DNA of 64,000 nucleotides, taken from the NCBI GenBank assembly GCA_033816765.1, contig CM066295.1:2604001-2668000 (forward strand), read 5' to 3'. Shown here one piece after another: positions 11,996 through 50,518 of the stretch. The translations under genes and the position numbers were made by a program. The notes beneath the pieces are model-generated. The model made no database searches, had not been told where the DNA came from, and saw only the letters and a list, made by a program, of their open reading frames with translations. The DNA comes from Nothopassalora personata. Its lineage: Eukaryota > Ascomycota > Dothideomycetes > Mycosphaerellales > Mycosphaerellaceae. Numbering within the stretch: position 1 is the first letter of the stretch; each line of letters opens with the position of its first letter.

Positions 11996-12365
11996 TTAAT
12001 GTCTACTAACTACCCTATGTAGGCCTGTCCGAGTTATAGTGGTGTAGAGCGGCGCTTATGTAAGTAGAGGTATTTACCGGTCCCGGGACCGTGAAATTAG
12101 GTCACGTAACGAGTAGCGTAGTAGCTAGATAAAATAAGAGGATTGGCGGACCTAAACCCCTATGCCCTCTACTCGAGAGGTATGAATTGAATTGTTACCT
12201 TAATGCTACGCTTACAATGCTCAACTACGTAGTATATATCTTAATAGCTATACTAGGTCCCGCTAGCTTACCTAAATGTCTAATTAAACCTAAATGAAAT
12301 TAGGGCAAGTTAGACCTAAGGGACCCCCTCTAAACCTAAGGTTAACATAACCTATTAGTCGTTAA
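11996..12365 (-). repeat. 3' LTR of F copy 1
   Basis: 370 bp, a direct repeat of 23,562-23,931 with many transitions. Near 12,073-12,092 it carries an imperfect version of the 26-bp palindrome (right arm GTGAAAT instead of GGTAAAT). The inside neighbour on the minus strand is a purine tract (about 12,366-12,380, AATAGGGGAGGATA on the minus strand), a likely polypurine tract. Confidence 0.8.
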
Positions 12366-12858
12366 TATATCCTCCCCTATTACGAACCTGTCCTTAGGTT
12401 CTAAAGTAGTAAGCCCGGGTATTATAGGTAGCTTAGTTAGTCGCTATAAGCTAAGGTAGTCTAGTAGTAGTATAGTAGCTCACCCTACTATTTAGCGTAA
12501 CATATAAGATGTTAGGTAATCCTAGGGCCTACTAGCGATAGTTTATAAAGGTCGAAAGGATCCTTCTAATAGAGACCGTAATAGCGTCTTTAATAACTAC
12601 GACTCGCATCCGTCGTACTGCATTAACGTATACTACGAAACTAGCGAGGGAATAGATAGCAATATTAGCATTAATCGAACGGGCTAGATAGTCGAATAAT
12701 GTAAACGCTATTTATAAGACAAGTGAGTATTAGTACTAGTAACCTAATAAATCTAAAGACGAGTCTATCGCGTAGCTAGAAAGTAAGTTAAGGGAAGATA
12801 AGTAACTATAAGAAACAAGTAAGATCTAAGGACTAGAAGTACCCGTACCCGAAGCATT

Positions 12859-12986
12859 AACTAGAATTAGAACTAGAATTAGAACTAGAATTAGAACTAG
12901 AATTAGAACTAGAATTAGAACTAGAATTAGAACTAGAATTAGAACTAGAATTAGAACTAGAATTAGAACTAGAATTATAACTAGAA
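12859..12986. repeat. 12-bp tandem array in F copy 1
   Basis: About eleven units of AACTAGAATTAG. In F copy 2 the same place (about 39,476-39,525) has a shorter, less regular 6-bp array (TCTAGT/TCTAAT/TCTAGC). Much of the 66-bp length difference between the two F copies comes from this array. Confidence 0.85.
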
Positions 12987-13060
12987 ACCTATAGGCTATA
13001 GCTATAGCCGGAAATTAACTAGAAACTAGGAGCCTATAAACCCGCACTAACTACTTAGTT

Positions 13061-16020: not shown

Positions 16021-16415
16021 TACTCTAGAGTATTAGTAAGCTTTAAAAGCTTAGTGTCGGGGTAGGGGCTTTAAAGAAGGTTAAGGTCGTAAAGAGAGAG
16101 GCTAAAGAATCGTCTAATATGTGTAGTAGTAGTAGTAGTAGTAGATAGATGTGTTAGTAGCTCTAGTAATAGTGTTAGTATTTAAAGAAAAAAGAGGAAG
16201 TAGTAGGTAGAGAGTTGCGCTTAAGTATACCTCTTAATATATATCCCTATAACCGTTATAAGGTAGTAGCGCCGAGACCGGTCTTATAAGTAGTAAGAGT
16301 AGTACTATTAAGGTTATACTAAAGGTCTAATAACCTTGTATATAACTGAAAACCAGTGCTAGTAACTACCTAGGTAAGCATTTAGTAGGGGCATACTACG
16401 CTATTACGTAATCCA

Positions 16416-16441
16416 ATTTACCGGTCCCGGGACCGGTAAAT
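16416..16441. other. 26-bp perfect palindrome between pol and third frame (F copy 1)
   Basis: Starts ATTTACCGGTCCC and continues as its own reverse complement, containing ACCGGT, CCCGGG and ACCGGT. It has no CA or TG step, so RIP could not touch it. It lies between the pol and third frames of F. Confidence 0.9.
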
Positions 16442-16582
16442 GTAACTCTACTAACTAAGGTCTAACTAAGGTAAGAACACCCTATAAATTAAAGTCTAGA
16501 TAACCGAATCGGCTTAATAAACTAAAGGGCATATGTAACACATACCTAAGGGGAGTGAACTCCGTACGCTATTACTAACTAA

Positions 16583-19500
16583 TTAGTTCTTAGCCTCGAT
16601 CCTACTAAACTGTAAAATTTCGGCTATAGAAAGGTTATAAGGCCTAACCTATAGCTTCTTAGGTTCCGGTTTAGGATACGATCCCCTTTCGTTAACTCCT
16701 ATAGGTAGTACGTCTTCGCCGGCGATAGGCTCGATCTCGTTCGAATTACTACTGTCTTCGCTATTAGTAACTTCTCCCTCTCCTATTACGAGATCGGCCC
16801 TATTATCTAAGTTTAGTACTCCTATATTATCCGGGCGAAGCTCTAGAACTAGCTTAAGGTTTTCCCATGCCTAAACACCCTTTATTAGCGTGCTATTAAG
16901 TTCCTTAAGAATATAGGTGCTAAATTCCCTAGAGACACTAGACACCCGATATAGACCTTACTATCGGTAACCGATCTTACGTAAGAAGTTATCCTTATAT
17001 AGCTTATCGAATCTTATAATAAGGTCGCCCTTCTAGAAACTAATAAAGTTAACATTCCGGTAAGAATTAAAGTAGTCCTTACTAAGTTCTCGTAGTCGCT
17101 TCCTTCGCGTATATAGCTCTTCTAAACTAAGGTCTCGAGCCTAGAGTTAACGCGCACGTATAGTAAGTAGGTCCTTAGTCGTTCTTACCGATCCCTATTA
17201 ATAATTCGCCTACGTCGGGTACTTAACCTTAATTAGTAGAATCGTGCGATAGCTATATAGGACCTAAGCTAGCGTTATTCTAGTAGTACGACAGGTCGTA
17301 GTCCTATTAGCCTATAATATAGCGGGTACCTATTACTCCTATCCGCGGTATATGTTCCTTATAAGCTTTACTAACGCTATAAGAATCGGACGGTACCTAA
17401 CCTCGACCGGAGTATTAGACTACGGATAGTACGGTAATATTCAGATCCTTCGAACACTAAGTCCTATAAGTAACCGCTTAACCTCAGCCGTATAAACCGT
17501 AGCGTTATTAAGCACAATTTTAGCGTAGTAGCCGTGCCTATAGAAGACATCCTTATATAGAAACTTAGTAACCGTCTTAGAGCTAGGAGGTGCCCTTATT
17601 ACTCTAGCCTCGATCCAGTTACTAAGTGCTTCGCGCGCGACTAGGAGGTATCCATTTTTATGCACCTAGACGGGGTCCGAGTACTACTTCTTACTAATGA
17701 CCTAAGGGCTCGATAAGTGAAGCTTACTAGCGCGCTAGTTGCCTTCGCAAAACCTATAAGGAGTATAACTTCGAACCTACGTAGAGACATCGGCGAAGTA
17801 CCCGTCTTAGTAATACCGATCGGAAATAAGGTTATATACGACCTTATCGCTACGATAACCGTGTCTTTTATAGTACTCTATAACGATTTCCTTCTAAGCC
17901 TTATTATCGTTAATTACAAGTTATAACGGTACTCCTCGGCGCTTCTAGAAGAATAGCAATTAGTCTCGGATAAAGAAGTTAACGCTCTTCTTTACTAGCC
18001 GCCGGTACTTAGTACGGGTAATACTATCGGGTCGGGTCCTAGTTTCTATAACCTAAGTAAGCTATTAAGAGCCCTTAGAATATTAGTCCCCGAGATGTCG
18101 TGTTTTCTAGATTTTAACTAGATAGGTATCGACCGGCTCCGGGTACCCGAATAGCTTATTATTAATTATCTAGTCGACTTCGTCTTCGTTAGCTTCCCTA
18201 GGTTCCTAAGGTGTAGAGGGCCTACGAGATAGGGCATCTAGGCTAGTGTGTCTAGTCCCCGTAACGTACTTTACCTCGAACGTAAATAACCTAATCTATA
18301 CGACCTACCGGGCTATTACCGAGTTCGGTAGGTCCGAAGCCGGCCGGTTAAGCTACTATATAAGCGTCTTAGTATTAACCTTAAGGACAAAATTAACGCT
18401 AGTAATATATCTCTAGATCTTCTTAAGCCCCTTAAGGATCCTAAGGCATTCCCGCTTACTAGCATTATATCTAGATTCTAACGCGTTCTAGATTCTACTC
18501 TTATACCGTACCGGGTAATGCCGTCGAGTACTGTCTATTAATTCTTAAGAAACGATACATCCCTATCTAGTGCCGCTAGCATTAACTAAGATAAAGATAG
18601 ACCTAGCACTAGGTAAGTAGTAGAGGGTAACTAAGGCTAGAGCCTACATAAGATATCTAGTAACTTCTTCTTTCGAGAACTGCTTATTTTCTATCTAGGT
18701 AAACTCGGCGTCCTTCTTTAGTAGCTTATACATTAGTCGAGCGATAATAACGAACTAGGGGATCTATATCCGGAAGTACACATATAGCCCTATATAGGTG
18801 CGGACCTCCTTAATATAGGTAGACGTAGGCTAATCTAGGATCTTAGCTATAACCTTTAGGTTAGGATAGCGACTATCCGGGCTAGTAACGTACCTAACAA
18901 TCTTAAGCTTTTCGTATAACTATTAGAATTTACCTCTAGTAACTACCGTACTAGCTCTTTCTAGGTTAGTAAGAACTAGATCTAGGGAAACGATGTACTT
19001 AACGACCTATTTCCTTAACCTAGGCTCTACTTCGGCATTCCTATAGTCCTTAGTTAGTTCCTTAATACCGATGTTATTGAGAAACGGCTTCGCTCGATAC
19101 GAGATATAATTAAGTAGAATCTTTATTACCGTACGTACGAACTAAGTAACTAAATTAGTAGCTCCTTAAGGTAGAGTCGTGTTACGTACTAGGCTAAGAG
19201 GGGTTATAAAGGCTATTAAGTCCCGGTAGGACTTATCTAAAGTAATCTAATTATAACCTAAAAACAGGTCTATAAGTGAAGCGACTTAGTACCCGGCAAA
19301 ATCCTCTAAGAAGCTATCCGTGTCCGGTGGAATGTTAGTATCGCGTATAGTAACCTTATTTAGGAGCATAGCTAAGTTAATTAACCGATATAGCATATCG
19401 CTTCTAGAGGTATTAACCTTCTTTACGACTAGGAACTAGCTATTAGAATATGCCCCTTATAAGTATTCTAGGATGTTGTTCTTAATCCGGGCTCTAATTA

Positions 19501-19951
19501 TGCGCTTAATAATTGCCCTAAGACTTAAGTGTAACTGGATAGGGCGTACCTACTATAGCCTATAAGGGACCGTGTTAATCTTCTAAGGTAGCATAACGTC
19601 GTACCTAATTTGCCTTATATAACTAAAATCCTAAGCGAGGACTGCCTCCCGGTTATAGAGTATCTTATTGAATAAGGCCCTTTCCATTAGTAATAGCTTA
19701 ATACTAACCTTAACTAAGGTAAGTCGTTCTAGAGTAATCCGGCTACCTCGCTTAATACTTAAGAATTTCTTAGTTAAGTACTTCCTATCAAACGGACCTT
19801 ATCCTTTAGGTATCTTAGATTCTAGGTACAGTGCCCTACGCTTCTATTCTATATCTCCCTTAACTCGTGATTCTAGGCGTTCGTAAACGCTCGCGTCTAC
19901 TAGCTTCTTCTTATCTGCCTTACGCTTATATATTGTAAAGACCTACGGCAT
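16583..19951 (-). pseudogene. F copy 1 RT-RNase H-integrase frame
   Basis: Mirror image of 32,500-35,879 in copy 2; see that entry for domains. From about 16,965 upward no difference from copy 2 was found. Below that, about 20 transitions and a 12-bp indel occur in 400 bp. The start codon on the minus strand is at 19,951. Confidence 0.75.
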
Positions 19952-20254
19952 CCTAATGTTAGCTATATGTTAGCCTACTTATTACTTCCGTACCTAAGCA
20001 TTTAATGTAGATTGCCTTAGGATCTCGGAGGGCTAATCTCCTTAAACTAAATAAACGTTAGTAATAGAATCTCCCTTAAACGCGCCTATTCCAATTTCTA
20101 TAACTCGTTCCTTTACTCTAGCAGTCCTAAGCAATCCTAATAAGTAAGCTAAATAGTTACTAGGCGTTAGAGCCTTACCGGGTTCCTATAGATACGTCGT
20201 GCCGTCCTATAGATACGTCGTACCGTAGTCGTATCCGTTTTCCTTACTATAGCT

Positions 20255-20280
20255 ATTTACCGGTCCCGGGACCGGTAAAT
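20255..20280. other. 26-bp perfect palindrome between gag-PR and pol (F copy 1)
   Basis: The same sequence as at 16,416-16,441, placed at the boundary between the gag-protease and RT frames. Confidence 0.9.
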
Positions 20281-20410
20281 TAAAGTCCGAGGTTTCTCCG
20301 AGATAGTACGAGAACCTTACTAATTTTATTAAATCCGGCTTTAGTAAATCGGTAGGTTAAGCGCCGTAACTTAACCTACCCTTCTATTTCCCGACGCTTT
20401 TAATAGTTCT

Positions 20411-23282
20411 TAAAGGGTCTTGCACCTATCCGAGCTAACTAGGGCAGTAAACATAACACTTTTACCTTTGCGGCTAGTAATAGTCCCCTCCTATAAACTA
20501 TTATCGTAGTTACGGGTAGTAAGCCGCACCTTACGGGCCTACGGACGTCCTAGGATTGTTAGTAAGTTTAGATCCGAAGAGATAAACATGTCTACCTAGT
20601 AGTAAACCCTAAATACCTAAACATCTAAATTGCCTATAACACCTTTAAACTAGGCCCGCCCTCTAGCACCTCGAAAGGTAAGCTAAGTACTCGACATTAC
20701 TAGTAACCTAAACCTATAAGCATTCCTCTAGCCGATAATATTCACCTTAGAACCCTTATTAATTAGGCACCTAATCTAGTTCTTATTTATCCTAAACTCC
20801 GCTACTACCTAAGGACTAGGGACTATAGTAAAGTTGTTAAGGACACTAGAGAGCCCGATTTTCTTAACGTCCTTATATAGCTTAGTAGTAGGGACCGCAC
20901 CTTTAGAGTAAAGTATAGTTAAATATACTCCGACATACTAGGCCTAACTATCTTCGCGGAAGACCTCCTTATTATACTTAGGTTTATCTTTATAGGTAAC
21001 TACTTGTCTAGTACGAACCTTAGGGTCCTTTCCTATAAGGCGTCGCACTATAGCGAGCTTCTCCTAAAGAGCGGGGGTGTTAGTAACGCGACCGAAGAGG
21101 GTAGCCTCGAACTAGCGACTATATCAAAACTAATCCTAGGCATTTACATTAGGAAACGTTATCTAGAGGATCTAATTAATCTAGTAGATAATACCCTCTT
21201 CCTTTATAACCGGGCTATTACTAGCTAAACTATATTATCGGACGTAGTTATTAATCCTTATAGTCTTAGCATTCTATATACGCTTCCTTTATGTAAAGGG
21301 GGCGTTTACGGGACTAATAGGTATATCCTTAGGTAGTCCTTTACTAGTACCGTTCCCTAGTTTATTTACTTAGGTATTATTTCCCCTTCCTAGGGTTACC
21401 CCGGATTTAGCTAATAATTAAGTTTCGCTTATTTAAGTACTAACTTCGTTAATTATTTTAACCTCCTACTAGTTAATCTTAGCTTATCGGATCTCCTATT
21501 CTAATTGTAGGCGAACTTTCTTAGTAGCCTTAGCTCGGGCTCGTAGGTCCTAGGCTAAGGACCGGGTCCTCGGGTGCGGATTCTTTAGAATGCCTACGGG
21601 TATCTTCCCTTTTACTTTATTAGACTACATAGGGTAGGTAGATACCTCGTTAAGCTCGCCTAAGTCGATCGCCTACTCCGCTTTACTTTCTCCGAATAAG
21701 ACCTAATATGTCCTAGTAGCCTTCTCCGTTTAGCTAGACCGTACGTCCTAAGGGCTATATTCTATTAAATGCCTAAAGTTAGGAGGGGGCTTAGAATAAT
21801 TAGGAGGCGTAACCTTTATTACCCTAGTGTAGTCCCTACTTATCTATACTTACGTAGTACGGGAATTTTATACTAGTTATTAAACTCGATCGGCCTATAA
21901 TGTTCTTCGAGTAGAGGGAGTATATAGAGCAGTTTCGGTTTACTATAGTCCCTCCAAAAGTTAAACTTAGTAGGACGCGGATCGCCTTCTTTCCCTAGAT
22001 ACTACTAGTTATTCGGGGCGAGGTATACGTAGCCCCGGGATATTAAGGACCTTATCGCCCTATAATTACTAGCCTAGTACTTCGAACTACTACAGTTGTA
22101 GTAATAGCTATCTATCGCTTTAGACTGTTCGCGATTCTACGATAGGGGACGCTATATTACGTAAACCTACAGTTTAGTATCTAGGTCGTGCCTCTCCGGT
22201 TATATAGAGCGTTAATTCTCGCTCGGGTAGAAGGTACCCGCGTCCGCAACGCGACCGCACTAGTATACACGTATGCTCATTTTAGCTACCTTCTAGATTA
22301 GGTTATTATTAATAACAGTCCTAGAGGTAGCCTTCTTAAGCGTATTAATCTTAGGCTTAAGGCGCGGCATTTACTTTACGACTAAGCAATGTAGCTAAGG
22401 TAAAGTAAGAGGGAAATCTATATGTATAGCTTTCTATCCCTCCTTACTATCTACGATACTAGTAGCTTTATCGAGAATCCTCTAAAAGTCCCTAAACTTC
22501 TTAGATTACTTTAGGTAAAGCCCGCAAGCCTTATAGACCGCTTTCGCGACTACCTCTAGCAATCCCTAAAGGAGAAGGCGACTCCGGGAGCTATTATCTA
22601 AATCCTTAGGTTCAATTAGGTCACTTAAGGATATAAATAGGCGGATAAATTCCTTTATATCCTATTCTTCGGGCCTCTTACCTTACTACGCCCTAATAAT
22701 CTCCTTAAGATATTCCCGACTCCCTAATATCGAGTAGGCGTTAAACCTTAAGAACTCTAATAAGAACGCCCTCCTAAAACGCGCCTTATTAGTAAGCTAC
22801 CTAGGTAGCCTTATAACTACGCGCCGGATAGTAGTTTCGCAATTACGCTTAAACCTACCCTAGAAATTATCCTTCTTAATAGATACCCGAGGCGGATACT
22901 AGTCTATTAGGTCGCTAAACCGCTCCTAGAACTTAGTAGCATTAGTGCCATTAAAGAACGGATTCTTAGCACCTCCTAGAGGTAGAAAGCGAGGGCTAGC
23001 GTTTTCTATTACTACTGCTAATCGTCTAAAGAGGGTAGTTATAGTATCCATTCTAATTGTACTATTCGTTCCTATACCTATACCTAATTTAGCGGCGCTA
23101 GTTCCGCTTCTCCCTTCTTTACTAGATTTAGGTGTTTCCCCTTCCTCCGATTCCTCTATCCCCTTATAAGGGACAGAATCCCTATAGACCCCTTCTATTT
23201 TCGTAGGGTTTATAGGCTGTTCGTAGCCTCTACCTATGTCGGCAAAGGTGCTAAGTTTCTCTAGTAATGTAGCCGTATCTAT
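20411..23282 (-). pseudogene. F copy 1 gag-protease frame
   Basis: Mirror image of 29,169-32,040 in copy 2, with no difference found in the stretches compared. The open piece 22,945-23,169 is an antisense shadow. Stops are TAG/TAA of the RIP type. Confidence 0.7.
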
Positions 23283-23561
23283 TATTACGTAGTACTTACT
23301 TTAGAATGTACTAATACTAGTTGTTACTTAATAGGACCTTATAACCGTAATTGTTACTAAATACCTTAGACCTTAAGTGTTTTCGACCTTAGTCGACCTT
23401 AACCGTGAACCTTAACCGTGAACCTTAACCTTAAACCTTAACCTTAAGTAATAACCTTAACCGTAAACCTTAGACCTTAAACCGTAATTTTAACCTTATA
23501 AACTAGATACTAATACGCTACCGGGTATACACTTAATACCCCCCCTTATTAACTACTAAAA

Positions 23562-23931
23562 TAATGTCTACTAACTACCCTATGTAGGCCTATCCGAGTT
23601 GTAGTAGTGTAGAGCGGCGCTTATGTAAGTAGAGGTATTTACCGGTCCCGGGACCGTAAAATTAGGTTACGTAACGAGTAGCGTAGTAGCTAGATAAAAT
23701 AAGAGGATTAGCGGACCTAAACCCCTATACCCTCTACTCGAGAGGTATAAATTAAATTGTTGCCTTAATGCTACGCTTATAATGCTTAACTGCGTAGTAT
23801 ATATCTTAATAGCTATACTAGGTCCCGCTAGCTTACTTAAATGTCTAATTAAACCTAAATGAAATTAGGGTAAGTTGGACCTAAGGGACCTCCCTCTAAA
23901 CCTAAGGTTAACATAACCTATTAGTCGTTAA
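23562..23931 (-). repeat. 5' LTR of F copy 1
   Basis: A direct repeat of 11,996-12,365 and an inverted repeat of 28,517-28,889. No difference from the copy 2 5' LTR was seen up to about 23,855; four differences follow in the last 75 bp. It carries a 23,637-23,660 version of the palindrome with a shortened right arm. On the element's inner side (23,395-23,480) is a run of AACCTTAACC/CCGTGAACC short repeats. Confidence 0.8.
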
Positions 23932-24131
23932 TACTATTTAGAACTACTACCTTCTTAACGAGTTTAAGACATCTCTATAAAGATCTAAGCCCGGTTAGGA
24001 TAACGTATAGCGGTTCCTAATAACTTTAAGTACTACTACTAGGGCCTTTATATATATCTAGGAGAGACGCTACCCGGAGTCCGTTATAATAATAGCTATA
24101 GTTAACTAGTATTACCGAACGAATAAGTAAA

Positions 24132-28200: not shown

Positions 28201-28516
28201 GTCGTATACTTATCGTAGGCGCCTAGCGAAGGGGACGCTAAGGACTAGTATATAAAGGACGGGTTAGTCTATCGCGGGAACGCGATTATAGTACCTAAAG
28301 ACTATATAGTAAGAGCATAGCTACTCTATATATATTATAACGACCTACTAGTAGGGCACTTTAGTAAGGTAAAGACTAAAGAGCTACTACGACGTTATTA
28401 CTAGTAGGAATCACTTAGTAAGGATGTAAGGGAGTATATTAGAAACTATAGGGCTTATTAGACCTCGAAGGCGAGGCGCTATCGACCCTACGGCGAGCTA
28501 TAGCTACTACCTAGTA
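25270..28516 (+). pseudogene. Gypsy family C gag-pol, first part, RIP-degraded with RT deletion
   Basis: The plus-strand translation shows gag (25,270-26,400; the longest open piece 25,529-25,729 holds the capsid start TPFRGD), a zinc-knuckle remnant at about 26,260 (KVEYYGYGRKGYY, Cys to Tyr), protease at about 26,520-26,800, then RT. At about 27,210 the RT jumps from FVLKKYS straight to EFLGFIV, so the catalytic palm with Tyr-x-Asp-Asp (roughly 130 residues) is missing. RNase H (about 27,500-27,900, with ADTLSRR) and the integrase zinc-binding region (about 28,330-28,480) follow. The frame is interrupted at 28,516 by F copy 2 and resumes at 40,392. Confidence 0.8.
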
Positions 28517-28889
28517 TTAACGACTAACGGGTTATGTTAACCTTAGGTTTAGAGGGGGGGGGTCCCTTAGGTCTAACTTACCCTAATTTCATTTAGGTTT
28601 AATTAGACATTTAGGTAAGCTAGCGGGACCTAGTATAGCTATTAAGATATATACTACGCAGTTAAGCATTATAAGCGTAGCATTAAGGCAACAATTTAAT
28701 TTATACCTCTCGAGTAGAGGGTATAGGGGTTTAGGTCCGCTAATCCTCTTATTTTATCTAGCTACTACGCTACTCGTTACGTAACCTAATTTTACGGTCC
28801 CGGGACCGGTAAATACCTCTACTTACATAAGCGCCGCTCTACACTACTACAACTCGGATAGGCCTACATAGGGTAGTTAGTAGACATTA
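28517..28889 (+). repeat. 5' LTR of F copy 2
   Basis: 373 bp. It carries a palindrome variant at 28,791-28,814 (left arm TTTACGG rather than TTTACCGG). The leader after it (28,890-29,168) has a G run and many GGTTAAGG/GGTTCACGG short repeats. Confidence 0.8.
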
Positions 28890-29168
28890 TTTTAGTAGTT
28901 AATAAGGGGGGGTATTAAGTGTATACCCGGTAGCGTATTAGTATCTAGTTTATAAGGTTAAAATTACGGTTTAAGGTCTAAGGTTTACGGTTAAGGTTAT
29001 TACTTAAGGTTAAGGTTTAAGGTTAAGGTTCACGGTTAAGGTTCACGGTTAAGGTCGACTAAGGTCGAAAACACTTAAGGTCTAAGGTATTTAGTAACAA
29101 TTACGGTTATAAGGTCCTATTAAGTAACAACTAGTATTAGTACATTCTAAAGTAAGTACTACGTAATA

Positions 29169-32040
29169 ATAGATACGGCTACATTACTAGAGAAACTTAG
29201 CACCTTTGCCGACATAGGTAGAGGCTACGAACAGCCTATAAACCCTACGAAAATAGAAGGGGTCTATAGGGATTCTGTCCCTTATAAGGGGATAGAGGAA
29301 TCGGAGGAAGGGGAAACACCTAAATCTAGTAAAGAAGGGAGAAGCGGAACTAGCGCCGCTAAATTAGGTATAGGTATAGGAACGAATAGTACAATTAGAA
29401 TGGATACTATAACTACCCTCTTTAGACGATTAGCAGTAGTAATAGAAAACGCTAGCCCTCGCTTTCTACCTCTAGGAGGTGCTAAGAATCCGTTCTTTAA
29501 TGGCACTAATGCTACTAAGTTCTAGGAGCGGTTTAGCGACCTAATAGACTAGTATCCGCCTCGGGTATCTATTAAGAAGGATAATTTCTAGGGTAGGTTT
29601 AAGCGTAATTGCGAAACTACTATCCGGCGCGTAGTTATAAGGCTACCTAGGTAGCTTACTAATAAGGCGCGTTTTAGGAGGGCGTTCTTATTAGAGTTCT
29701 TAAGGTTTAACGCCTACTCGATATTAGGGAGTCGGGAATATCTTAAGGAGATTATTAGGGCGTAGTAAGGTAAGAGGCCCGAAGAATAGGATATAAAGGA
29801 ATTTATCCGCCTATTTATATCCTTAAGTGACCTAATTGAACCTAAGGATTTAGATAATAGCTCCCGGAGTCGCCTTCTCCTTTAGGGATTGCTAGAGGTA
29901 GTCGCGAAAGCGGTCTATAAGGCTTGCGGGCTTTACCTAAAGTAATCTAAGAAGTTTAGGGACTTTTAGAGGATTCTCGATAAAGCTACTAGTATCGTAG
30001 ATAGTAAGGAGGGATAGAAAGCTATACATATAGATTTCCCTCTTACTTTACCTTAGCTACATTGCTTAGTCGTAAAGTAAATGCCGCGCCTTAAGCCTAA
30101 GATTAATACGCTTAAGAAGGCTACCTCTAGGACTGTTATTAATAATAACCTAATCTAGAAGGTAGCTAAAATGAGCATACGTGTATACTAGTGCGGTCGC
30201 GTTGCGGACGCGGGTACCTTCTACCCGAGCGAGAATTAACGCTCTATATAACCGGAGAGGCACGACCTAGATACTAAACTGTAGGTTTACGTAATATAGC
30301 GTCCCCTATCGTAGAATCGCGAACAGTCTAAAGCGATAGATAGCTATTACTACAACTGTAGTAGTTCGAAGTACTAGGCTAGTAATTATAGGGCGATAAG
30401 GTCCTTAATATCCCGGGGCTACGTATACCTCGCCCCGAATAACTAGTAGTATCTAGGGAAAGAAGGCGATCCGCGTCCTACTAAGTTTAACTTTTGGAGG
30501 GACTATAGTAAACCGAAACTGCTCTATATACTCCCTCTACTCGAAGAACATTATAGGCCGATCGAGTTTAATAACTAGTATAAAATTCCCGTACTACGTA
30601 AGTATAGATAAGTAGGGACTACACTAGGGTAATAAAGGTTACGCCTCCTAATTATTCTAAGCCCCCTCCTAACTTTAGGCATTTAATAGAATATAGCCCT
30701 TAGGACGTACGGTCTAGCTAAACGGAGAAGGCTACTAGGACATATTAGGTCTTATTCGGAGAAAGTAAAGCGGAGTAGGCGATCGACTTAGGCGAGCTTA
30801 ACGAGGTATCTACCTACCCTATGTAGTCTAATAAAGTAAAAGGGAAGATACCCGTAGGCATTCTAAAGAATCCGCACCCGAGGACCCGGTCCTTAGCCTA
30901 GGACCTACGAGCCCGAGCTAAGGCTACTAAGAAAGTTCGCCTACAATTAGAATAGGAGATCCGATAAGCTAAGATTAACTAGTAGGAGGTTAAAATAATT
31001 AACGAAGTTAGTACTTAAATAAGCGAAACTTAATTATTAGCTAAATCCGGGGTAACCCTAGGAAGGGGAAATAATACCTAAGTAAATAAACTAGGGAACG
31101 GTACTAGTAAAGGACTACCTAAGGATATACCTATTAGTCCCGTAAACGCCCCCTTTACATAAAGGAAGCGTATATAGAATGCTAAGACTATAAGGATTAA
31201 TAACTACGTCCGATAATATAGTTTAGCTAGTAATAGCCCGGTTATAAAGGAAGAGGGTATTATCTACTAGATTAATTAGATCCTCTAGATAACGTTTCCT
31301 AATGTAAATGCCTAGGATTAGTTTTGATATAGTCGCTAGTTCGAGGCTACCCTCTTCGGTCGCGTTACTAACACCCCCGCTCTTTAGGAGAAGCTCGCTA
31401 TAGTGCGACGCCTTATAGGAAAGGACCCTAAGGTTCGTACTAGACAAGTAGTTACCTATAAAGATAAACCTAAGTATAATAAGGAGGTCTTCCGCGAAGA
31501 TAGTTAGGCCTAGTATGTCGGAGTATATTTAACTATACTTTACTCTAAAGGTGCGGTCCCTACTACTAAGCTATATAAGGACGTTAAGAAAATCGGGCTC
31601 TCTAGTGTCCTTAACAACTTTACTATAGTCCCTAGTCCTTAGGTAGTAGCGGAGTTTAGGATAAATAAGAACTAGATTAGGTGCCTAATTAATAAGGGTT
31701 CTAAGGTGAATATTATCGGCTAGAGGAATGCTTATAGGTTTAGGTTACTAGTAATGTCGAGTACTTAGCTTACCTTTCGAGGTGCTAGAGGGCGGGCCTA
31801 GTTTAAAGGTGTTATAGGCAATTTAGATGTTTAGGTATTTAGGGTTTACTACTAGGTAGACATGTTTATCTCTTCGGATCTAAACTTACTAACAATCCTA
31901 GGACGTCCGTAGGCCCGTAAGGTGCGGCTTACTACCCGTAACTACGATAATAGTTTATAGGAGGGGACTATTACTAGCCGCAAAGGTAAAAGTGTTATGT
32001 TTACTGCCCTAGTTAGCTCGGATAGGTGCAAGACCCTTTA
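29169..32040 (+). pseudogene. F copy 2 gag-protease frame
   Basis: The likely start is the ATA at 29,169, a mutated ATG. The gag core reads from about 29,480, with KNPFFNGTNATKF as the capsid opening and RFSDLID soon after. Downstream (about 31,680-31,960) is a retropepsin-like region: the active-site Asp-Ser/Thr-Gly appears as Asn-Lys-Gly before SKVNIIG, and ILGRP follows. Stops are TAG/TAA. The open pieces 29,282-29,506 and 31,223-31,447 (both minus) are antisense shadows. Confidence 0.7.
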
Positions 32041-32170
32041 AGAACTATTAAAAGCGTCGGGAAATAGAAGGGTAGGTTAAGTTACGGCGCTTAACCTACC
32101 GATTTACTAAAGCCGGATTTAATAAAATTAGTAAGGTTCTCGTACTATCTCGGAGAAACCTCGGACTTTA

Positions 32171-32196
32171 ATTTACCGGTCCCGGGACCGGTAAAT
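32171..32196. other. 26-bp perfect palindrome between gag-PR and pol (F copy 2)
   Basis: ATTTACCGGTCCC followed by its exact reverse complement, placed 304 bp before the pol ATG at 32,500. Confidence 0.9.
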
Positions 32197-32499
32197 AGCT
32201 ATAGTAAGGAAAACGGATACGACTACGGTACGACGTATCTATAGGACGGCACGACGTATCTATAGGAACCCGGTAAGGCTCTAACGCCTAGTAACTATTT
32301 AGCTTACTTATTAGGATTGCTTAGGACTGCTAGAGTAAAGGAACGAGTTATAGAAATTGGAATAGGCGCGTTTAAGGGAGATTCTATTACTAACGTTTAT
32401 TTAGTTTAAGGAGATTAGCCCTCCGAGATCCTAAGGCAATCTACATTAAATGCTTAGGTACGGAAGTAATAAGTAGGCTAACATATAGCTAACATTAGG

Positions 32500-35400
32500 A
32501 TGCCGTAGGTCTTTACAATATATAAGCGTAAGGCAGATAAGAAGAAGCTAGTAGACGCGAGCGTTTACGAACGCCTAGAATCACGAGTTAAGGGAGATAT
32601 AGAATAGAAGCGTAGGGCACTGTACCTAGAATCTAAGATACCTAAAGGATAAGGTCCGTTTGATAGGAAGTACTTAACTAAGAAATTCTTAAGTATTAAG
32701 CGAGGTAGCCGGATTACTCTAGAACGACTTACCTTAGTTAAGGTTAGTATTAAGCTATTACTAATGGAAAGGGCCTTATTCAATAAGATACTCTATAACC
32801 GGGAGGCAGTCCTCGCTTAGGATTTTAGTTATATAAGGCAAATTAGGTACGACGTTATGCTACCTTAGAAGATTAACACGGTCCCTTATAGGCTATAGTA
32901 GGTACGCCCTATCCAGTTACACTTAAGTCTTAGGGCAATTATTAAGCGCATAATTAGAGCCCGGATTAAGAACAACATCCTAGAATACTTATAAGGGGCA
33001 TATTCTAATAGCTAGTTCCTAGTCGTAAAGAAGGTTAATACCTCTAGAAGCGATATGCTATATCGGTTAATTAACTTAGCTATGCTCCTAAATAAGGTTA
33101 CTATACGCGATACTAACATTCCACCGGACACGGATAGCTTCTTAGAGGATTTTGCCGGGTACTAAGTCGCTTCACTTATAGACCTGTTTTTAGGTTATAA
33201 TTAGATTACTTTAGATAAGTCCTACCGGGACTTAATAGCCTTTATAACCCCTCTTAGCCTAGTACGTAACACGACTCTACCTTAAGGAGCTACTAATTTA
33301 GTTACTTAGTTCGTACGTACGGTAATAAAGATTCTACTTAATTATATCTCGTATCGAGCGAAGCCGTTTCTCAATAACATCGGTATTAAGGAACTAACTA
33401 AGGACTATAGGAATGCCGAAGTAGAGCCTAGGTTAAGGAAATAGGTCGTTAAGTACATCGTTTCCCTAGATCTAGTTCTTACTAACCTAGAAAGAGCTAG
33501 TACGGTAGTTACTAGAGGTAAATTCTAATAGTTATACGAAAAGCTTAAGATTGTTAGGTACGTTACTAGCCCGGATAGTCGCTATCCTAACCTAAAGGTT
33601 ATAGCTAAGATCCTAGATTAGCCTACGTCTACCTATATTAAGGAGGTCCGCACCTATATAGGGCTATATGTGTACTTCCGGATATAGATCCCCTAGTTCG
33701 TTATTATCGCTCGACTAATGTATAAGCTACTAAAGAAGGACGCCGAGTTTACCTAGATAGAAAATAAGCAGTTCTCGAAAGAAGAAGTTACTAGATATCT
33801 TATGTAGGCTCTAGCCTTAGTTACCCTCTACTACTTACCTAGTGCTAGGTCTATCTTTATCTTAGTTAATGCTAGCGGCACTAGATAGGGATGTATCGTT
33901 TCTTAAGAATTAATAGACAGTACTCGACGGCATTACCCGGTACGGTATAAGAGTAGAATCTAGAACGCGTTAGAATCTAGATATAATGCTAGTAAGCGGG
34001 AATGCCTTAGGATCCTTAAGGGGCTTAAGAAGATCTAGAGATATATTACTAGCGTTAATTTTGTCCTTAAGGTTAATACTAAGACGCTTATATAGTAGCT
34101 TAACCGGCCGGCTTCGGACCTACCGAACTCGGTAATAGCCCGGTAGGTCGTATAGATTAGGTTATTTACGTTCGAGGTAAAGTACGTTACGGGGACTAGA
34201 CACACTAGCCTAGATGCCCTATCTCGTAGGCCCTCTACACCTTAGGAACCTAGGGAAGCTAACGAAGACGAAGTCGACTAGATAATTAATAATAAGCTAT
34301 TCGGGTACCCGGAGCCGGTCGATACCTATCTAGTTAAAATCTAGAAAACACGACATCTCGGGGACTAATATTCTAAGGGCTCTTAATAGCTTACTTAGGT
34401 TATAGAAACTAGGACCCGACCCGATAGTATTACCCGTACTAAGTACCGGCGGCTAGTAAAGAAGAGCGTTAACTTCTTTATCCGAGACTAATTGCTATTC
34501 TTCTAGAAGCGCCGAGGAGTACCGTTATAACTTGTAATTAACGATAATAAGGCTTAGAAGGAAATCGTTATAGAGTACTATAAAAGACACGGTTATCGTA
34601 GCGATAAGGTCGTATATAACCTTATTTCCGATCGGTATTACTAAGACGGGTACTTCGCCGATGTCTCTACGTAGGTTCGAAGTTATACTCCTTATAGGTT
34701 TTGCGAAGGCAACTAGCGCGCTAGTAAGCTTCACTTATCGAGCCCTTAGGTCATTAGTAAGAAGTAGTACTCGGACCCCGTCTAGGTGCATAAAAATGGA
34801 TACCTCCTAGTCGCGCGCGAAGCACTTAGTAACTGGATCGAGGCTAGAGTAATAAGGGCACCTCCTAGCTCTAAGACGGTTACTAAGTTTCTATATAAGG
34901 ATGTCTTCTATAGGCACGGCTACTACGCTAAAATTGTGCTTAATAACGCTACGGTTTATACGGCTGAGGTTAAGCGGTTACTTATAGGACTTAGTGTTCG
35001 AAGGATCTGAATATTACCGTACTATCCGTAGTCTAATACTCCGGTCGAGGTTAGGTACCGTCCGATTCTTATAGCGTTAGTAAAGCTTATAAGGAACATA
35101 TACCGCGGATAGGAGTAATAGGTACCCGCTATATTATAGGCTAATAGGACTACGACCTGTCGTACTACTAGAATAACGCTAGCTTAGGTCCTATATAGCT
35201 ATCGCACGATTCTACTAATTAAGGTTAAGTACCCGACGTAGGCGAATTATTAATAGGGATCGGTAAGAACGACTAAGGACCTACTTACTATACGTGCGCG
35301 TTAACTCTAGGCTCGAGACCTTAGTTTAGAAGAGCTATATACGCGAAGGAAGCGACTACGAGAACTTAGTAAGGACTACTTTAATTCTTACCGGAATGTT

Positions 35401-35879
35401 AACTTTATTAGTTTCTAGAAGGGCGACCTTATTATAAGATTCGATAAGCTATATAAGGATAACTTCTTACGTAAGATCGGTTACCGATAGTAAGGTCCAT
35501 ATCGGGTGTCTAGTATCTCTAGGGAATTTAGTACCTATATTCTTAAGGAACTTAATAGTACGCTAATAAAGGGTGTTTAGGCACGGGAAAACCTTAAGCT
35601 AGTCCTAGAGCTTCGCCCGGATAATATAGGAGTACTAAACTTAGATAATGGGGCCGATCTCGTAATAGGGGAGGGAGAAGTCGCTGATAGCGTCGCTAAT
35701 AGCGAAGATAGTAGTAATTCGAACGAGATCGAGCCTATCGCCGACGAAGACGTGCTACCTATAGGAGTTAACGAAAGGGGATCGTATCCTAAACCGGAAT
35801 CTAAGAAGCTATAGGTTAGGCCTTATAACCTTTCTATAGCCAAAATTTCATAGTTTAGTAGGATCGAAGCTAAGAACTA
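32500..35879 (+). pseudogene. F copy 2 RT-RNase H-integrase frame
   Basis: An ATG at 32,500 opens one continuous frame of about 1,125 codons, ending in TAA near 35,879 and broken only by TAG/TAA of the RIP type. A Lys-rich start is followed by RT (about 32,820-33,600), then RNase H (about 33,800-34,230, ending DALSRRP) and integrase (about 34,480-35,350). The piece 34,786-35,010 is open and is true coding sequence, showing NWIEARVI and YRHGYYAKIVLNNATVY. An acidic tail follows. The usual RT Tyr-x-Asp-Asp box is not obvious; a divergent stretch stands there. Confidence 0.75.
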
Positions 35880-36021
35880 ATTAGTTAGTAATAGTGTACG
35901 GAGTTTACTTCCCTTAGGCATGTATTGCACATACCCTTCAGTTTATTAAGCCGATTCGGTTATCTAGACTTCACTTTACGGGGTGTTCTTACCTTAGTTA
36001 GACCTTAGTTAGTAGAGTTAT

Positions 36022-36047
36022 ATTTACCGGTCCCGGGACCGGTAAAT
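36022..36047. other. 26-bp perfect palindrome between pol and third frame (F copy 2)
   Basis: The same 26-bp palindrome, 143 bp after the pol stop and about 380 bp before the third frame. Confidence 0.9.
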
Positions 36048-36424
36048 CGGATTACGTAATAGCGTAGCATGCCCCTACCGAATGCTTACCTAGGTAGTTA
36101 CTAGTACTAGTTTTCGGTTACATATAGGGTTATCGGACCTTTAGTGTAACCTTAATAGTACTGCTCTTACTACTTATAAGACCGGTCTCGGCGCTACTAC
36201 CTTATAACGGTTATAGGGACATACGCTAAGAGGTATACTTAAGCGTAGCTCTCTACCTACTACTCCCTCTCTTTTTCTTTAAATACTAACACTATTACTA
36301 GAGCTACTAATACATCTATCTACTACTACTATATACATCGGACGGTTCTTTAGCCTCTCTCTCTTTACGACCTTAACCTTCTTTAAAGCCCCTACCCCGA
36401 TACTAAGCTTTTAAAGCTTACTAA

Positions 36425-39397
36425 CACTCTAGAGTAGTACTACGAGATAGCTAGCTCTTACGATCTTACTAGTAGCGAATCCTAGTTATTAAAGCTTTAG
36501 CTAGTCCTTCGTTACGCCCGGCTAGCTCAAGTATAGCGCTTACTAGCACTATTACTAGGCTTACCCGCCTACCTTAGACCTTATTCGAGTCTCTTTGCCT
36601 ACCGGACAACGTTAAGCATGTCCTTACTAATACGAACACGCCGAAGTCCGCCGCTAATGTTATGTTCCGGGAGCTTAATCCTTAGAAGCGGGTTAAGGTA
36701 TTAAAGGACTTCTATAAGGGCTTTGAGAAGGTATTCGAAGACTACTCCGTCTAGGTTAACCTGTTTTTCGAGGAAGTTAAGAGCGGCATAGGTAAGAGCT
36801 ACTAGGATGAATTCCTTAGTAATAAGAAGCTCGATATCTTGTTTCCTATCGTCGGTAAGATTCGTAAGACCGGTTTAGAGATTCGTAACCGAGAGAAGAC
36901 TCTTCGAGCTACGCTTACCCGCTACTAGCTATAGTAGATAGATAATAAGATTCTTAATCGACGCGTTATCTCCGAGCTTTATAGTACTAACAGCGGGCGC
37001 CGTTAGTTCACGGCCTTTATTAATAAGTACCTAGACTATAGTAGGGCTATTAGTAGAATTTAGAGGGTATTAATCTAGCGTATAAGGATCGGCCGTAAGG
37101 GCATAGATCGTAAGCGAATTCTAGAGCCTAGTAATCTTACCCGGTGCGATAGGGAGGCCAAAGCACGTAGCATTAATCCGCAGTCGGCTAAGAGTAGGGA
37201 GATTATTAGAAGACACCGCCTAGCCGTCTATAAGGATAGCCTTCTATACTTTATAGAGGGTACTATTACTAAGAAGTCCGCGTCCCTAGAGGACAGTATA
37301 GATTAACCTAGACTATCTAGCTAGTAATAGCCTTAGCTACGTTAGCTACTACCGGGTAGTAAAGGTAAAGGACGTGTAAAGAGTACTACGCTAACTCTAC
37401 TAGCCTCTACCTAGCCTATAGTCCTATCGAGAGGCGGTCGTAAGTCGAGTCGACTTAAGTAGCTCCGTATAGGCGAGAGCATAGGTAAGGGCATAACTAC
37501 GCCTACTTAATCCTCGCCTAACCGAACGCTAGACGGCATACCTATACGCGAAGGTAGTCCGCTAGGTATACCGGTTAGCACCCTACGATCTACTCCGGCC
37601 CTAACTAAGAATATTAATCTAATACTTACTATGTTACCTTCGGCTATAATTAGGGATGTATTAGTCTTTAAGGATTAGATCCTATAAGAAGACGAGGCCC
37701 TCCGGATTAAGCGCGCTAACTATACCTATAATAAGCGGTACTATAGCATTAAGTTTAGAAACTCGATTAATATAGATAGCATTAACTAGCTACCTAACTA
37801 CCGGATAGCGGGCCTTAAGATGCTTGAATATACTATCTCGTAGGTTCTTAAGAGGGATAGTAAGGTTAGCGCTATAATGTACGATTAGTATATTCGAGAT
37901 TTCTACTATAAGGCCCTCTACTTTGTTACGAATCCCGGTATTACCGCTAATACCCTATGTAAGCGTGCGCTTAAGGTCTAAGACTAGCTCTTTAAAGGCA
38001 AGAGTTTTTTAGCTATTAAGGTGAAGAATAGGTCGTGGTTTCGCCCTAATAAGCGTAGTTAGAAGACTATTAACCCGCTTAGCTATCTCCGTATTCGAGG
38101 TAAAGTCGGTACTACGAGTAGCATCGTTACGTATACTAACTATAACTAGATCCTCGATAAATTCGGCATTAATAAAGCTAACTAAGCCGATCTTAATAGT
38201 ACCGGTACCTACATTAATAGTAACATGCTATACTAGTATAATAACGCTAAACTAGCGCCGCGGGTTAAAACAGTTAGAGAAATAATAAGTCGAGAATTCG
38301 ACGTGTATCGATAGTACCTACGAGAATTAAATAAGGTTAGTAACGGCGGCGTCTACTAGAACATATAGTATTCTCTAAGCTAATAGATTATACGATAAGA
38401 CCCCGGGCTATAGCTCTTATAAGTAGCGCTACACCCTTAACACTACACTCGGTTTATCTCCTTCCCTAGGCCTACGATTTTTAGCTTTAATAGGGCTTAT
38501 TAGGGGGGTAACGCGAACACTATAGTACAGTATACTAGGGTTAACTTAAACCTCGAAATTAAAAACTACTAGACTAGTAACCGGCTTAATATGCTATACT
38601 CTCTTAACTTAGAGGGTACTAGTAGGCCGGAGTTTTTATACGGTTTGTATAAGTAAGGGAATGCTAGAGAGTTTATCTAGTAGTGCCGGATTAACGACTA
38701 TATAGAAGACGGCCAATTTAAGCGTTTCTTCTCGGTTAGGGTCTAGAATTACCTAAGTAAGAACAGCATTAGCTAGTTTAGAGAGTACCTAAGCGCTAGG
38801 TAAATGCGGGTAACTACTATAGGCATTCTAATAAGGTAGGCCGTATATAAGAGGACGCTACGTTAGATTAACCCTTACTTTATCGAGATCCGCGACGATA
38901 ACTATCTTAAACTCTAGAGAAGCTAGAGCATACACTAGGTAATAGATCTCTATCGTAACTTTAAGACGCTAAGTAAGAGCGCTATAGGGTTTAAGTATCG
39001 ACGCCTAGTACCCGGCTATCCTTTTCCTACGGCCGTACACCTTAGTAGTATTAGCCCTCTATCCGATGCCCTAGCGGGTTTAAAATCTTAGAACGATAAC
39101 GAAGTTATCCTTAATGCTAGAAGGTAGCTTAATGCTACGGTCCGCCTAGACTCGGAGCTCTTCTATAAGAAGATGTATAATTAGCGCGTCCGAGCTATAA
39201 AATTAATAAATAAGTAGCTTAGCTTAGTTACTACTCTCGAGTAGATATACTTTATAAGCGAGGGGCGTAATAAGAGCTTCTTCCGTAACTACTATAGGAA
39301 CTTCACTAGCTAGCTACTTAGGGACGCGTCTAGTAAGACTAGTGTTAGCTACGATAACGAGTAGGTCTAGATAAAGGAGTTATGTAAGAATGAGTGA
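36425..39397 (+). pseudogene. F copy 2 third frame, unknown protein of about 990 codons
   Basis: One continuous frame runs from about 36,425 to a TGA at 39,395-39,397. It is interrupted only by TAG/TAA, as expected from RIP of a Gln/Trp-containing protein. What can be seen: a helical, charged N-terminal region (about 36,660-37,260), a Ser/Thr/Pro-rich linker (about 37,300-37,600), and a long C-terminal region rich in Tyr, Asn and Arg with no transmembrane segment or signal peptide. I see no zinc-finger spacing, tyrosine-recombinase box or envelope-like features. It follows the integrase in the same direction, where LTR elements sometimes carry an extra gene. Function unknown. The real end could lie farther on, because copy 1 has TAG where copy 2 has TGA, as if both came from TGG. 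Confidence 0.65.
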
Positions 39398-40016
39398 AAC
39401 TAAGTAGTTAGTGCGGGTTTATAGGCTCCTAGTTTCTAGTTGATTTTCCGGCTATAGCTATAGCCTATAGGTTTCTAGTTCTAATTCTAATTCTAGTTCT
39501 AGTTCTAGCTCTAGCTCTAGTTAATACTTCGGGTACGGGTACTTCTAGTCCTTAGATCTTACTTACTTCTTATAGTTACTTATCTTCCCTTAACTCACTT
39601 TCTAGCTACGCGATAGACTCGTCTTTAGAGTTATTAGGTTACTAGTACTAACACTTACTTATCTTATAAATGGCGTTTACATTATCCGACTATCTAGCCC
39701 GTTCGATTAATACTAACATAGCTGTCCATTCCCTCGCTAGTTTCGTAGTATACGTTAACGTAGTGCGACGGGCGCTAGTCGCGGATTATTAACGTTACTA
39801 TTACAGTCTCTATTAGAGAAATCCTTTCGACCTTTATCAACTGTCGCTAGTAGACCCTAGGATTGCCTAACATCTTATATATTAAGCTAAATAGTAGGGT
39901 GAGCTACTATGCTACTATAAGACTACCTTAGCTTATAGCGACTAACTAAGCTACCTATAGTGCCCGGGTTTACTACTTTAGAACCTAAGGACAGGTTCGT
40001 AATAGGGGAGGATATA

Positions 40017-40386
40017 TTAACGACTAATAGGTTATGTTAACCTTAGGTTTAGAGGGGGTCCCTTAGGTCTAACTTGCCCTAATTTCATTTAGGTTTAATT
40101 AGACATTTAGGTAAGCTAGCGGGACCTAGTATAGCTATTAAGATATATACTACGTAGCTAAGCATTGTAAGCGTAGTATTAAGGTAACAATTCAATTTAT
40201 ACCTCTCGAGTAGAGGGTATAGGGGTTTAGGTCCGCTAATCCTCTTATTTTATCTAGCTACTACGCTACTCGTTACGTGACCTAATTTCACGGTCCCGGG
40301 ACCGGTAAATACCTCTACTTACATAAGCGCCGCTCTACACTACCATAACTCGGACAGGCCTACATAGGGTAGTTAGTAGACATTAA
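40017..40386 (+). repeat. 3' LTR of F copy 2
   Basis: 370 bp, a direct repeat of 28,517-28,889 with transitions. It contains the palindrome variant at 40,286-40,310. It abuts TAGTA, the target duplication. Confidence 0.8.
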
Positions 40387-40391
40387 TAGTA

Positions 40392-43395: not shown

Positions 43396-43843
43396 TGTTA
43401 CGGTTCTAATCTAGGGCTAAAGGAAGCTAACTAATTAGACCTCTATAACTAGTAGGCGCTTCCGCCCGAGAAATGCTCTCTCGCCCGTAGGAACGAAACT
43501 AAGGAACTAAGAGAGTAACTAAAGTAATCTCCTTAACCTCGTTAATCTCTATAATCTCGAGAGAGTATAGAGAGCATAGAGAGTACGGAGAGTAAACGCT
43601 CTATCTCCTTTATATTTAGGAACGCTAAAAACCCTTATAGTTTCGACGCGTTTAACTCACTATTTAATATTACTATTTAGAATATACTATAACCTAACCT
43701 CTACCTTACTGCTACTTAGTCTTTATAAGATAAGACAGCTACTGCTTTATTATTCTCCCTTGACTTCCTATCGGCCCGAGAATAAACCCGATTAAGCTTA
43801 TCTTCTTAACTTATAATATCATTAGGTTATACTAAACCTAATA
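43396..43843 (+). repeat. 5' LTR of family A element
   Basis: 448 bp, matching 50,071-50,518 without indels. It contains a GAGAGTATAGAGAGCATAGAGAG repeat in the middle (about 43,561-43,595). Confidence 0.92.
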
Positions 43844-43943
43844 GCTTTAAACGCCCTCTACGATAGGAGACCGATAGAGTAAACGGGGAACACCCGCCCC
43901 TAGTAAAGTAAGTAGAGCCCGACGACCTTAGACCGCAAACGAT

Positions 43944-50070: not shown

Positions 50071-50518
50071 TGTTACGGTTCTAATCTAGGGCTAAAGGAA
50101 GCTAACTAATTAGACCTCTATAACTAGTAGGCGCTTCCGCCCGAGAAATGCTCTCTTGCCCGTAGGAACGAAACTAAGGAACTAAGAGAGTAACTAAAGT
50201 AATCTCCTTAACCTCGTTAATCTCTATAATCTCGAGAGAGTATAGAGAGTATAGAGAGTACGGAGAGTAAACGCTCTATCTCCTTTATATTTAGGAACGC
50301 TAAAAACCCTTATAGTTTCGACGCGTTTAACTTACTGTTCAATATCACTATTTAGAATACACTATAACCTAACCTCTACCTCACTGCTGCTTAGTCTTTA
50401 TAAGACAAGACAGCTACTGCTTTATTATTCTCCCTTGACTTCCTATCGGCCCGAGAACAAACCCGATTAAGCTTATCTTCTTAACTTGTAATATTATTAG
50501 GTTATACTAAACCTAATA
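50071..50518 (+). repeat. 3' LTR of family A element
   Basis: 448 bp, paired with 43,396-43,843 and followed by GACGC. It keeps more CA/TG than the 5' LTR at several sites (for example ACTGTTCAATATCAC). Confidence 0.92.

What the first reader, a model, noticed from the sequence alone, without database searches (positions are those of the whole stretch)
28517..40386. Large Gypsy-like family (F) with a third, unknown gene after the integrase
Seen: two copies (11.9 kb each), each with LTRs, its own 5-bp target duplication, gag-PR, RT-RH-IN, and then a continuous about 990-codon frame in the same direction whose only stops are RIP-type TAG/TAA. Established: most fungal Gypsy elements are 5-8 kb with gag-pol only. 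Inference: the third frame is a real, element-borne gene. It shows no envelope features (no signal peptide or membrane helix) and no domain I know, so it may be a new accessory protein.
Basis: partly seen in the sequence, partly recalled or inferred. Interest (0 to 1): 0.85.

Follow-up and report, generated by a model that had tools for sequence, protein, structure and literature searches.

The report
Fungal Gypsy element with accessory gene
A 12-kb fungal jumping element carries, besides its usual replication genes, a real 967-amino-acid gene of unknown kind that seems to have its own promoter, and intact young copies of it still exist in the same genome.

Summary
The 36.5-39.4 kb frame is a genuine element-borne gene, not a nested insertion. 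The window copy is RIP-saturated, but the genome also holds young un-RIPed copies, so no reconstruction was needed: 31 of 32 stop-free pol loci have ORF3 at the same distance, and 19 of 47 scored ORF3 loci are one stop-free 967-codon frame. At least 1,690 of 1,714 stops in 30 RIPed copies fall on CAG, CAA or TGG codons of an un-RIPed copy. Non-RIP polymorphism shows purifying selection in this frame (pN/pS 0.42-0.62; other forward frames above 1). ORF3 lies 0.6 kb behind the pol stop; that spacer holds a pyrimidine tract and a 26-bp palindrome plus CACGTG, matching the LTR in inverted orientation (34 of 39 bases). I infer an own promoter tied to the LTR; splicing is the main rival. ORF3 has no membrane helix and no match in Pfam, NCBIfam, PHROGs, PDB or the protein set searched; structure prediction failed. 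[quoted passage not shown] its biochemical role stays open.

The parts
28511..28514 (.). left target-site duplication, CTAG
   Evidence: by eye against three un-RIPed copies
28515..28889 (+). 5' LTR (RIPed)
   Evidence: self-alignment, 95.2% to the 3' LTR; ends from un-RIPed copies
28790..28813 (+). LTR version of the palindrome module (2 mismatches to the 24-mer); in un-RIPed LTRs it is preceded by TCACGTGA
29169..35880 (+). gag-pol: gag with CCHC-like knuckle, protease (by eye), RT, RNase H, integrase; RIPed here. In un-RIPed copies two overlapping frames (24 of 32) or one (5 of 32). End approximate, mapped from copies
   Evidence: start column ATA 11 / ATG 2; domains on un-RIPed pieces; frame lengths; pol stop
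32171..32196 (+). perfect 26-bp palindrome inside the open pol frame, between protease and RT
35881..36490 (+). spacer between the pol stop and the ORF3 start (about 0.6 kb)
   Evidence: stops in all frames of un-RIPed copies; non-triplet indels up to 36389; no codon phase
36022..36047 (.). perfect 26-bp palindrome of the spacer; with the neighbouring CACGTG of un-RIPed copies it matches the LTR module in inverted orientation, 34 of 39 bases
36249..36280 (+). pyrimidine tract (29 of 32 in the un-RIPed copy), 200 nt before the ORF3 ATG there; candidate promoter element
36491..39403 (+). ORF3, the accessory gene: 967 codons plus stop; RIPed here (about 60 in-frame stops), intact in 19 of 47 scored loci of the un-RIPed query
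39404..40014 (+). 3' non-coding stretch with a short (TTCTAG)n array
   Evidence: non-triplet indels from 39444, about twice the polymorphism density, no codon phase
40015..40385 (+). 3' LTR (RIPed)
40386..40389 (.). right target-site duplication, ATAG (3 of 4 bases as on the left)
11997..23937 (-). second RIPed copy of the same element, inverted; also carries the ORF3 stretch

Best explanation
This is a Ty3/Gypsy retrotransposon with an accessory gene between pol and the 3' LTR. Shown: the gene is real, sense-oriented, 967 codons, part of the family, under purifying selection, and intact in young copies. Inferred: it is transcribed as a mRNA of its own from a promoter in the 0.6-kb spacer that carries the same control module (26-bp palindrome plus CACGTG) as the LTR, so gag-pol and ORF3 switch on together; its soluble product works inside the cell as a regulator of the element's own expression, RNA handling or silencing, not as an envelope. 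My estimates: real accessory gene 0.97; own promoter 0.6 (lowered from 0.65 after re-reading a splice-acceptor-like stretch before the ATG); regulatory role rather than cargo or structural role 0.35.
For: Gene: one 967-codon frame from ATG to TGA in an un-RIPed copy; 19 of 47 scored loci full-length without a stop; ORF3 at the same distance behind 31 of 32 stop-free pol pieces; among 30 RIPed copies the indels from 36390 to 39443 are all multiples of three, but not outside; third-position excess of non-RIP polymorphism from 36450 to 39150; pN/pS 0.62, 0.49, 0.42 at minor-allele counts of at least 1, 2, 3 of 30, other forward frames 1.10-2.04. Element: RT, RNase H and integrase zinc-domain profiles, best solved relative Ty3 Gag-Pol. 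Own mRNA: pol ends 0.6 kb upstream with stops in all frames between, so read-through or frameshift does not make ORF3; LTR and spacer share the module, score 29 against at most 16 in 200 shuffles; pyrimidine tract reached by 2 of 1,000 shuffles, and the first ATG after it is that of ORF3. Not envelope: highest 19-residue hydropathy 0.95, first 30 residues not hydrophobic.
Against: No transcript data. The module match rests mainly on the palindrome: with it masked, 4 of 200 shuffles reach the flank score; palindrome alone gives 20-24 in the other comparisons. The palindrome is no better conserved among copies than its neighbours (intact in 23 of 29 and, RIP-type changes allowed, 17 of 20), and one of its sites lies inside the open pol frame, which does not look like a promoter. 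The ATG-free leader is weak (1,818 of 10,000 shuffles also lack ATG). No domain, homologue or fold supports a regulatory role. Fixed non-RIP differences between un-RIPed and RIPed copies are too few to test selection (6 S, 14 N, ratio 0.67). A reverse frame sharing the third positions also scores below 1 (0.46-0.73). The 30 copies aligned were the best matches of a protein search, which favours in-frame ones.
Confidence: 0.58

Rival explanations
1. ORF3 is a genuine accessory gene, but its mRNA is made by splicing from the LTR promoter to an acceptor just before ORF3, as for Cer1 CERV.
For: Pol and ORF3 are separated and need a mRNA of their own; splicing is the precedent in Cer1 (PMC10309623, abstract). 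GTAAG occurs in the leader behind the LTR, and a CTGAT starts 22 nt before the ORF3 ATG with a TAG 12 nt behind it, which could serve as branch and acceptor.
Against: It is one of only two CTRAY sites in the spacer, and no splice score was computed; the spacer has a promoter-like tract and module.
Confidence: 0.23
2. ORF3 is a captured host gene carried as cargo, with its host promoter, and does nothing for the element.
For: Own spacer with promoter-like tract; third-position GC 0.665 against 0.552 in pol, 0.598 in gag and 0.609 in one host gene, too few genes to decide.
Against: Kept behind 31 of 32 stop-free pol pieces, under selection before RIP, control module shared with the LTR. A host paralogue could not be excluded: element copies fill the scored list.
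Confidence: 0.15
3. ORF3 is an envelope-like protein of an infectious Gypsy lineage.
For: Position between pol and the 3' LTR, sense orientation.
Against: No membrane helix or hydrophobic start by simple hydropathy.
Confidence: 0.03
4. The frame is a nested insertion or a chance open frame in RIPed DNA.
For: RIP removes and makes stops; the window copy alone cannot tell.
Against: Intact un-RIPed frame, constant place behind pol, stops explained.
Confidence: 0.01

Closest known systems
Sense additional ORFs (aORF-3S) of plant LTR retrotransposons, e.g. Bagy2 (review PMC7264820, abstract and passages read)
   Same: Extra gene between pol and 3' LTR, sense orientation
   Different: Plant ones are called env-like, some with transmembrane domains; ORF3 has none; no sequence comparison made
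Maize Grande gene23 (passage and cited title in PMC7264820)
   Same: Accessory gene behind pol transcribed from its own promoter; nuclear protein
   Different: Antisense; plant
Retand antisense ORFs with TRP28 domain (PMC11963269, abstract)
   Same: Long pol-3' LTR region with coding capacity, proposed regulators
   Different: Antisense; TRP28 domain; plant
Boty/BcGypsy1 brtn of Botrytis cinerea (Zhao 2011, title only, cited in PMC8365987 and PMC7264820; passages of PMC8365987 read)
   Same: Fungal Gypsy element with an additional gene; copies with high and low RIP in one strain
   Different: brtn is antisense by its title; sequence not compared
Fungal Gypsy elements with 'add. ORF' of unknown function or dUTPase (PMC2864245, passages and a figure legend)
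   Same: Extra ORF or domain in fungal Gypsy elements
   Different: That paper treats chromodomain elements; no chromodomain found in our pol end; ORFs not compared
Cer1 CERV of C. elegans (PMC10309623, abstract)
   Same: Novel protein of an LTR retrotransposon besides Gag and Pol; needed for genomic RNA export
   Different: Made from a spliced mRNA; nematode; no sequence comparison
Orchid Gypsy with AlkB-like RNA demethylase ORF (PMC9289625, abstract)
   Same: Large Gypsy lineage with an additional ORF
   Different: Known 2-ODD domain; ORF3 has no significant Pfam match

Membership tests
Ty3/Gypsy LTR retrotransposon | LTRs with short target duplication | tested here: met
   375/371-bp LTRs; 4-bp duplications in three un-RIPed copies, by eye
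Ty3/Gypsy LTR retrotransposon | RT - RNase H - integrase order and similarity to Ty3 | tested here: met
   PF00078, PF17917/PF17919, PF17921 above cut-off and in order; rve only E 0.12, below cut-off, in a piece that ends inside the domain; Ty3 Gag-Pol E 6.6e-35
Ty3/Gypsy LTR retrotransposon | Gag with zinc knuckle, aspartic protease, PBS and PPT | tested here: inconclusive
   zf-CCHC 10.4 bits, below the cut-off of 20.8; protease by eye only; PBS and PPT not tested
Chromovirus subgroup | chromodomain at the end of integrase | tested here: not met
   no Pfam match in the last 264 residues of pol
LTR retrotransposon with sense additional ORF (aORF-3S) | ORF between pol and 3' LTR, sense, in most copies | tested here: met
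   31 of 32 stop-free pol pieces
Env-carrying Gypsy | signal peptide or transmembrane helix in the third gene | tested here: not met
   maximum 19-residue hydropathy 0.95; simple hydropathy only
Antisense accessory gene (brtn, Grande gene23, Retand) | antisense orientation | tested here: not met
Antisense accessory gene (brtn, Grande gene23, Retand) | sequence homology to those proteins | not tested
   their sequences were not at hand

The most novel reading that the evidence does not exclude
ORF3 is an element-encoded anti-silencing factor that lets young copies escape RIP or related silencing. The genome shows heavy RIP of this family, yet 19 ORF3 copies, 99-100% alike and three of them in one 5.5-kb-spaced linked array (linked duplications being the classical target of RIP, recalled), are untouched. 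ORF3 and the LTR share a palindromic control module, so the factor would be made whenever the element is. The plain alternative, no sexual cycle since the last burst, is not excluded either.
Probability: 0.07. Interest if true: 0.92.

Novelty: new variant of a known kind. Interest (0 to 1): 0.52.

Why it matters
Accessory genes of retrotransposons reveal what the host does against them (export block, RNA methylation, silencing). Here a fungal Gypsy family with hundreds of candidate copies keeps a large gene without detected relatives, apparently with a promoter tied to the LTR, in a genome with strong RIP; RIPed and un-RIPed copies lie side by side, so a role in escape from silencing can be tested. 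It also shows that RIPed windows can be read without reconstruction when young copies exist.

Tried and rejected
Homology with the RIPed frame (X at stops): nothing in Pfam, the protein set (single copy and 20-copy alignment) or PDB. Homology with the intact frame: one sub-threshold Pfam match (influenza C NS1, E 0.055, 13.6 of 27 bits) and one PHROG (E 0.36), both judged chance; none in NCBIfam, PDB, the protein set or IMG/VR (RIPed alignment in IMG/VR). The protein search needs shared exact words, and how well it covers fungi was not tested. Structure prediction: pLDDT 26 and 31, not usable, no fold search run. From memory I suspected a dioxygenase-like motif in the C-terminal part and searched the genome for one recalled fungal motif: 0 matches; dropped. 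I first thought pol was a separate cistron with its own leader, since codon phase is weak at 32.05-32.35 kb; I now prefer a -1 shift from the protease frame, because the pol frame is open through that stretch and overlaps the protease end, phase appears at 32.35 kb before the first in-frame ATG of the piece read, and 5 of 32 copies have one fused frame; not proven. With it went the idea that a palindrome leads each of three genes. Special conservation of the palindrome: not supported. The first alignment of 30 copies mixed strands and was redone. In some searches the ORF3 set was L001-L038, in which some copies occur twice (L001 and L009 are one), so counts of 'at least 2' there are inflated; one search used 30 distinct loci.

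Full report
Observation. The element lies at 28515-40385 with a second, inverted copy at 11997-23937. The window is C9:2604001-2668000 of an unnamed 54.5-Mb genome with 40 contigs. A 3-kb probe over ORF3 gave 456 first-look candidates of which 40 were scored, all 40 covering 2,969 bases or more at 95-100% identity; a protein search gave 567 candidates, 47 scored, all covering at least 971 of 972 residues. These lists are the best matches only. The copies are RIP-saturated.

The gene. Among 30 RIPed copies (30 of the 47 scored, those whose DNA was given) all indels within 36390-39443 are 3, 6 or 9 bases; outside they are of any length. Non-RIP polymorphism is highest at third positions from 36450 to 39150 (no excess in the last 300-base bin), and its density about doubles behind 39450. 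pN/pS in the frame is 0.62/0.49/0.42 (172 S, 230 N; 76 S, 77 N; 46 S, 39 N for minor counts of at least 1, 2, 3), in the other two forward frames 1.10-2.04; one reverse frame that shares third positions gives 0.46-0.73. In 28 of the 67 columns where at least five copies have a stop, other copies show CAG, CAA or TGG. The column at 39401 is TAA in 28 and TGA in 2, which marked the true end, and 36491 was the start candidate.

Young copies. A short probe showed that un-RIPed versions exist. One un-RIPed locus has ORF3 as a single 967-codon frame, starting and ending where inferred; a second has one frame break (99.8% alike). With this protein as query, 564 candidates gave 47 scored loci (49 rows); 19 are full-length without stop, two more full-length with one TGA, the rest truncated, broken or RIPed (RIPed ones 75-77% identical). 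Pol: 32 full-length pieces without stop among 47 scored; 15 of the 19 ORF3 copies have such a pol at the expected distance, and 31 of the 32 pol pieces have un-RIPed ORF3 at a constant distance. LTR pairs of three un-RIPed copies: 378/378 and 372/372 identical, the third without mismatch but with one gap. The commonest base of the 30 RIPed copies differs from the un-RIPed ORF3 at 372 sites of RIP type in CpA context and 17 in other contexts; only 20 sites of other kinds are fixed in at least 80% of copies. So RIPed and un-RIPed copies are close relatives, and activity is recent. I name no copy as complete.

Class. Un-RIPed pol matches RT, RNase H and H2C2 integrase profiles and Ty3 Gag-Pol. 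The pol frame is 1,285 codons in 24 of 32 stop-free pieces and fused with gag-PR (2,230-2,232) in 5. No chromodomain was found.

How ORF3 is expressed. Between the pol stop and the ORF3 ATG lie 0.6 kb with stops in all frames. A 26-bp perfect palindrome sits there and again inside the open pol frame; its 24-bp core occurs exactly at 465 places of the genome, with nine pairs 3.8-3.9 kb apart among the places listed, as expected for this element. The LTR has a slightly different version. In un-RIPed DNA the LTR and the spacer share a 39-base stretch, GTCACGTGA..GATTT, palindrome, AAAT, 34 of 39 bases, in opposite orientation. A 32-base pyrimidine tract (29 of 32) lies 200 nt before the ATG; that such tracts mark transcription starts in filamentous fungi is recalled, not tested. 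I take this as an own promoter. Against it: the palindrome inside pol, its ordinary conservation, and a branch/acceptor-like CTGAT...TAG just before the ATG, which leaves splicing open.

What ORF3 does. Unknown. It is soluble by hydropathy, charge-balanced (126 K+R, 120 D+E), with a Cys/His-rich stretch at residues 408-474 (CTCNERYC, CDQH, CHKALH) that may bind zinc (inference). In the unusable model of the RIPed copies the first 260 residues are mostly helical, followed by a stretch without structure. By analogy with CERV, gene23 and retroviral accessory proteins I favour a regulator of the element.

Literature. Searches (no paper), 78, 79, 80, 98 and 102 led to additional ORFs in plant elements, brtn and other ORFs in Botrytis, and an 'add. 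ORF' in a figure legend on fungal Gypsy elements; in the abstracts and passages I saw, none describes this protein, but it could not be compared with theirs by sequence, and most subscription papers are not held.

Noticed in passing
window 29012-35011 against the second copy (11997-23937, minus): The two inverted RIPed copies are identical over twelve 500-base bins and 2.6-9% different from 35.5 kb on: gene conversion or recombination after RIP.
   Followed up: partly
G000 contig C3, L077: Three ORF3 copies spaced 5,456 bp; the gap read between two of them is 3' region, LTR, then directly the integrase end and spacer: an internal-deletion derivative that keeps ORF3 but not gag or RT, un-RIPed; the third has a full pol.
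   Followed up: partly
whole genome: RIP-saturated and un-RIPed copies of one family coexist; fixed non-RIP differences are only 20 in 2.9 kb of ORF3, so RIP seems recent and has spared the youngest copies.
   Followed up: partly
window 28515-28521, 40379-40385: LTR ends are TATTGAC...GACATTA in three un-RIPed copies, not TG...CA, with 4-bp target duplications containing TA.
   Followed up: partly
G000 gag-pol: Un-RIPed copies come in two forms: pol frame separate (24 of 32) or fused with gag-PR in one frame (5 of 32).
   Followed up: no
window 43396-43844 and 50071-50519: A second direct-repeat pair (449 bp, 97%) 6.7 kb apart: probably another, shorter LTR element with A-rich strand bias.
   Followed up: no
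window 12859-12986 and 11465-11627: Short tandem arrays, one inside the second F copy, one just outside it.
   Followed up: no
G000 contig C23: One ORF3 locus at 86% identity has 6 TGA and 2 TAA, unlike the TAG-rich RIP pattern; and one stop-free pol on this contig has no ORF3 found behind it.
   Followed up: no
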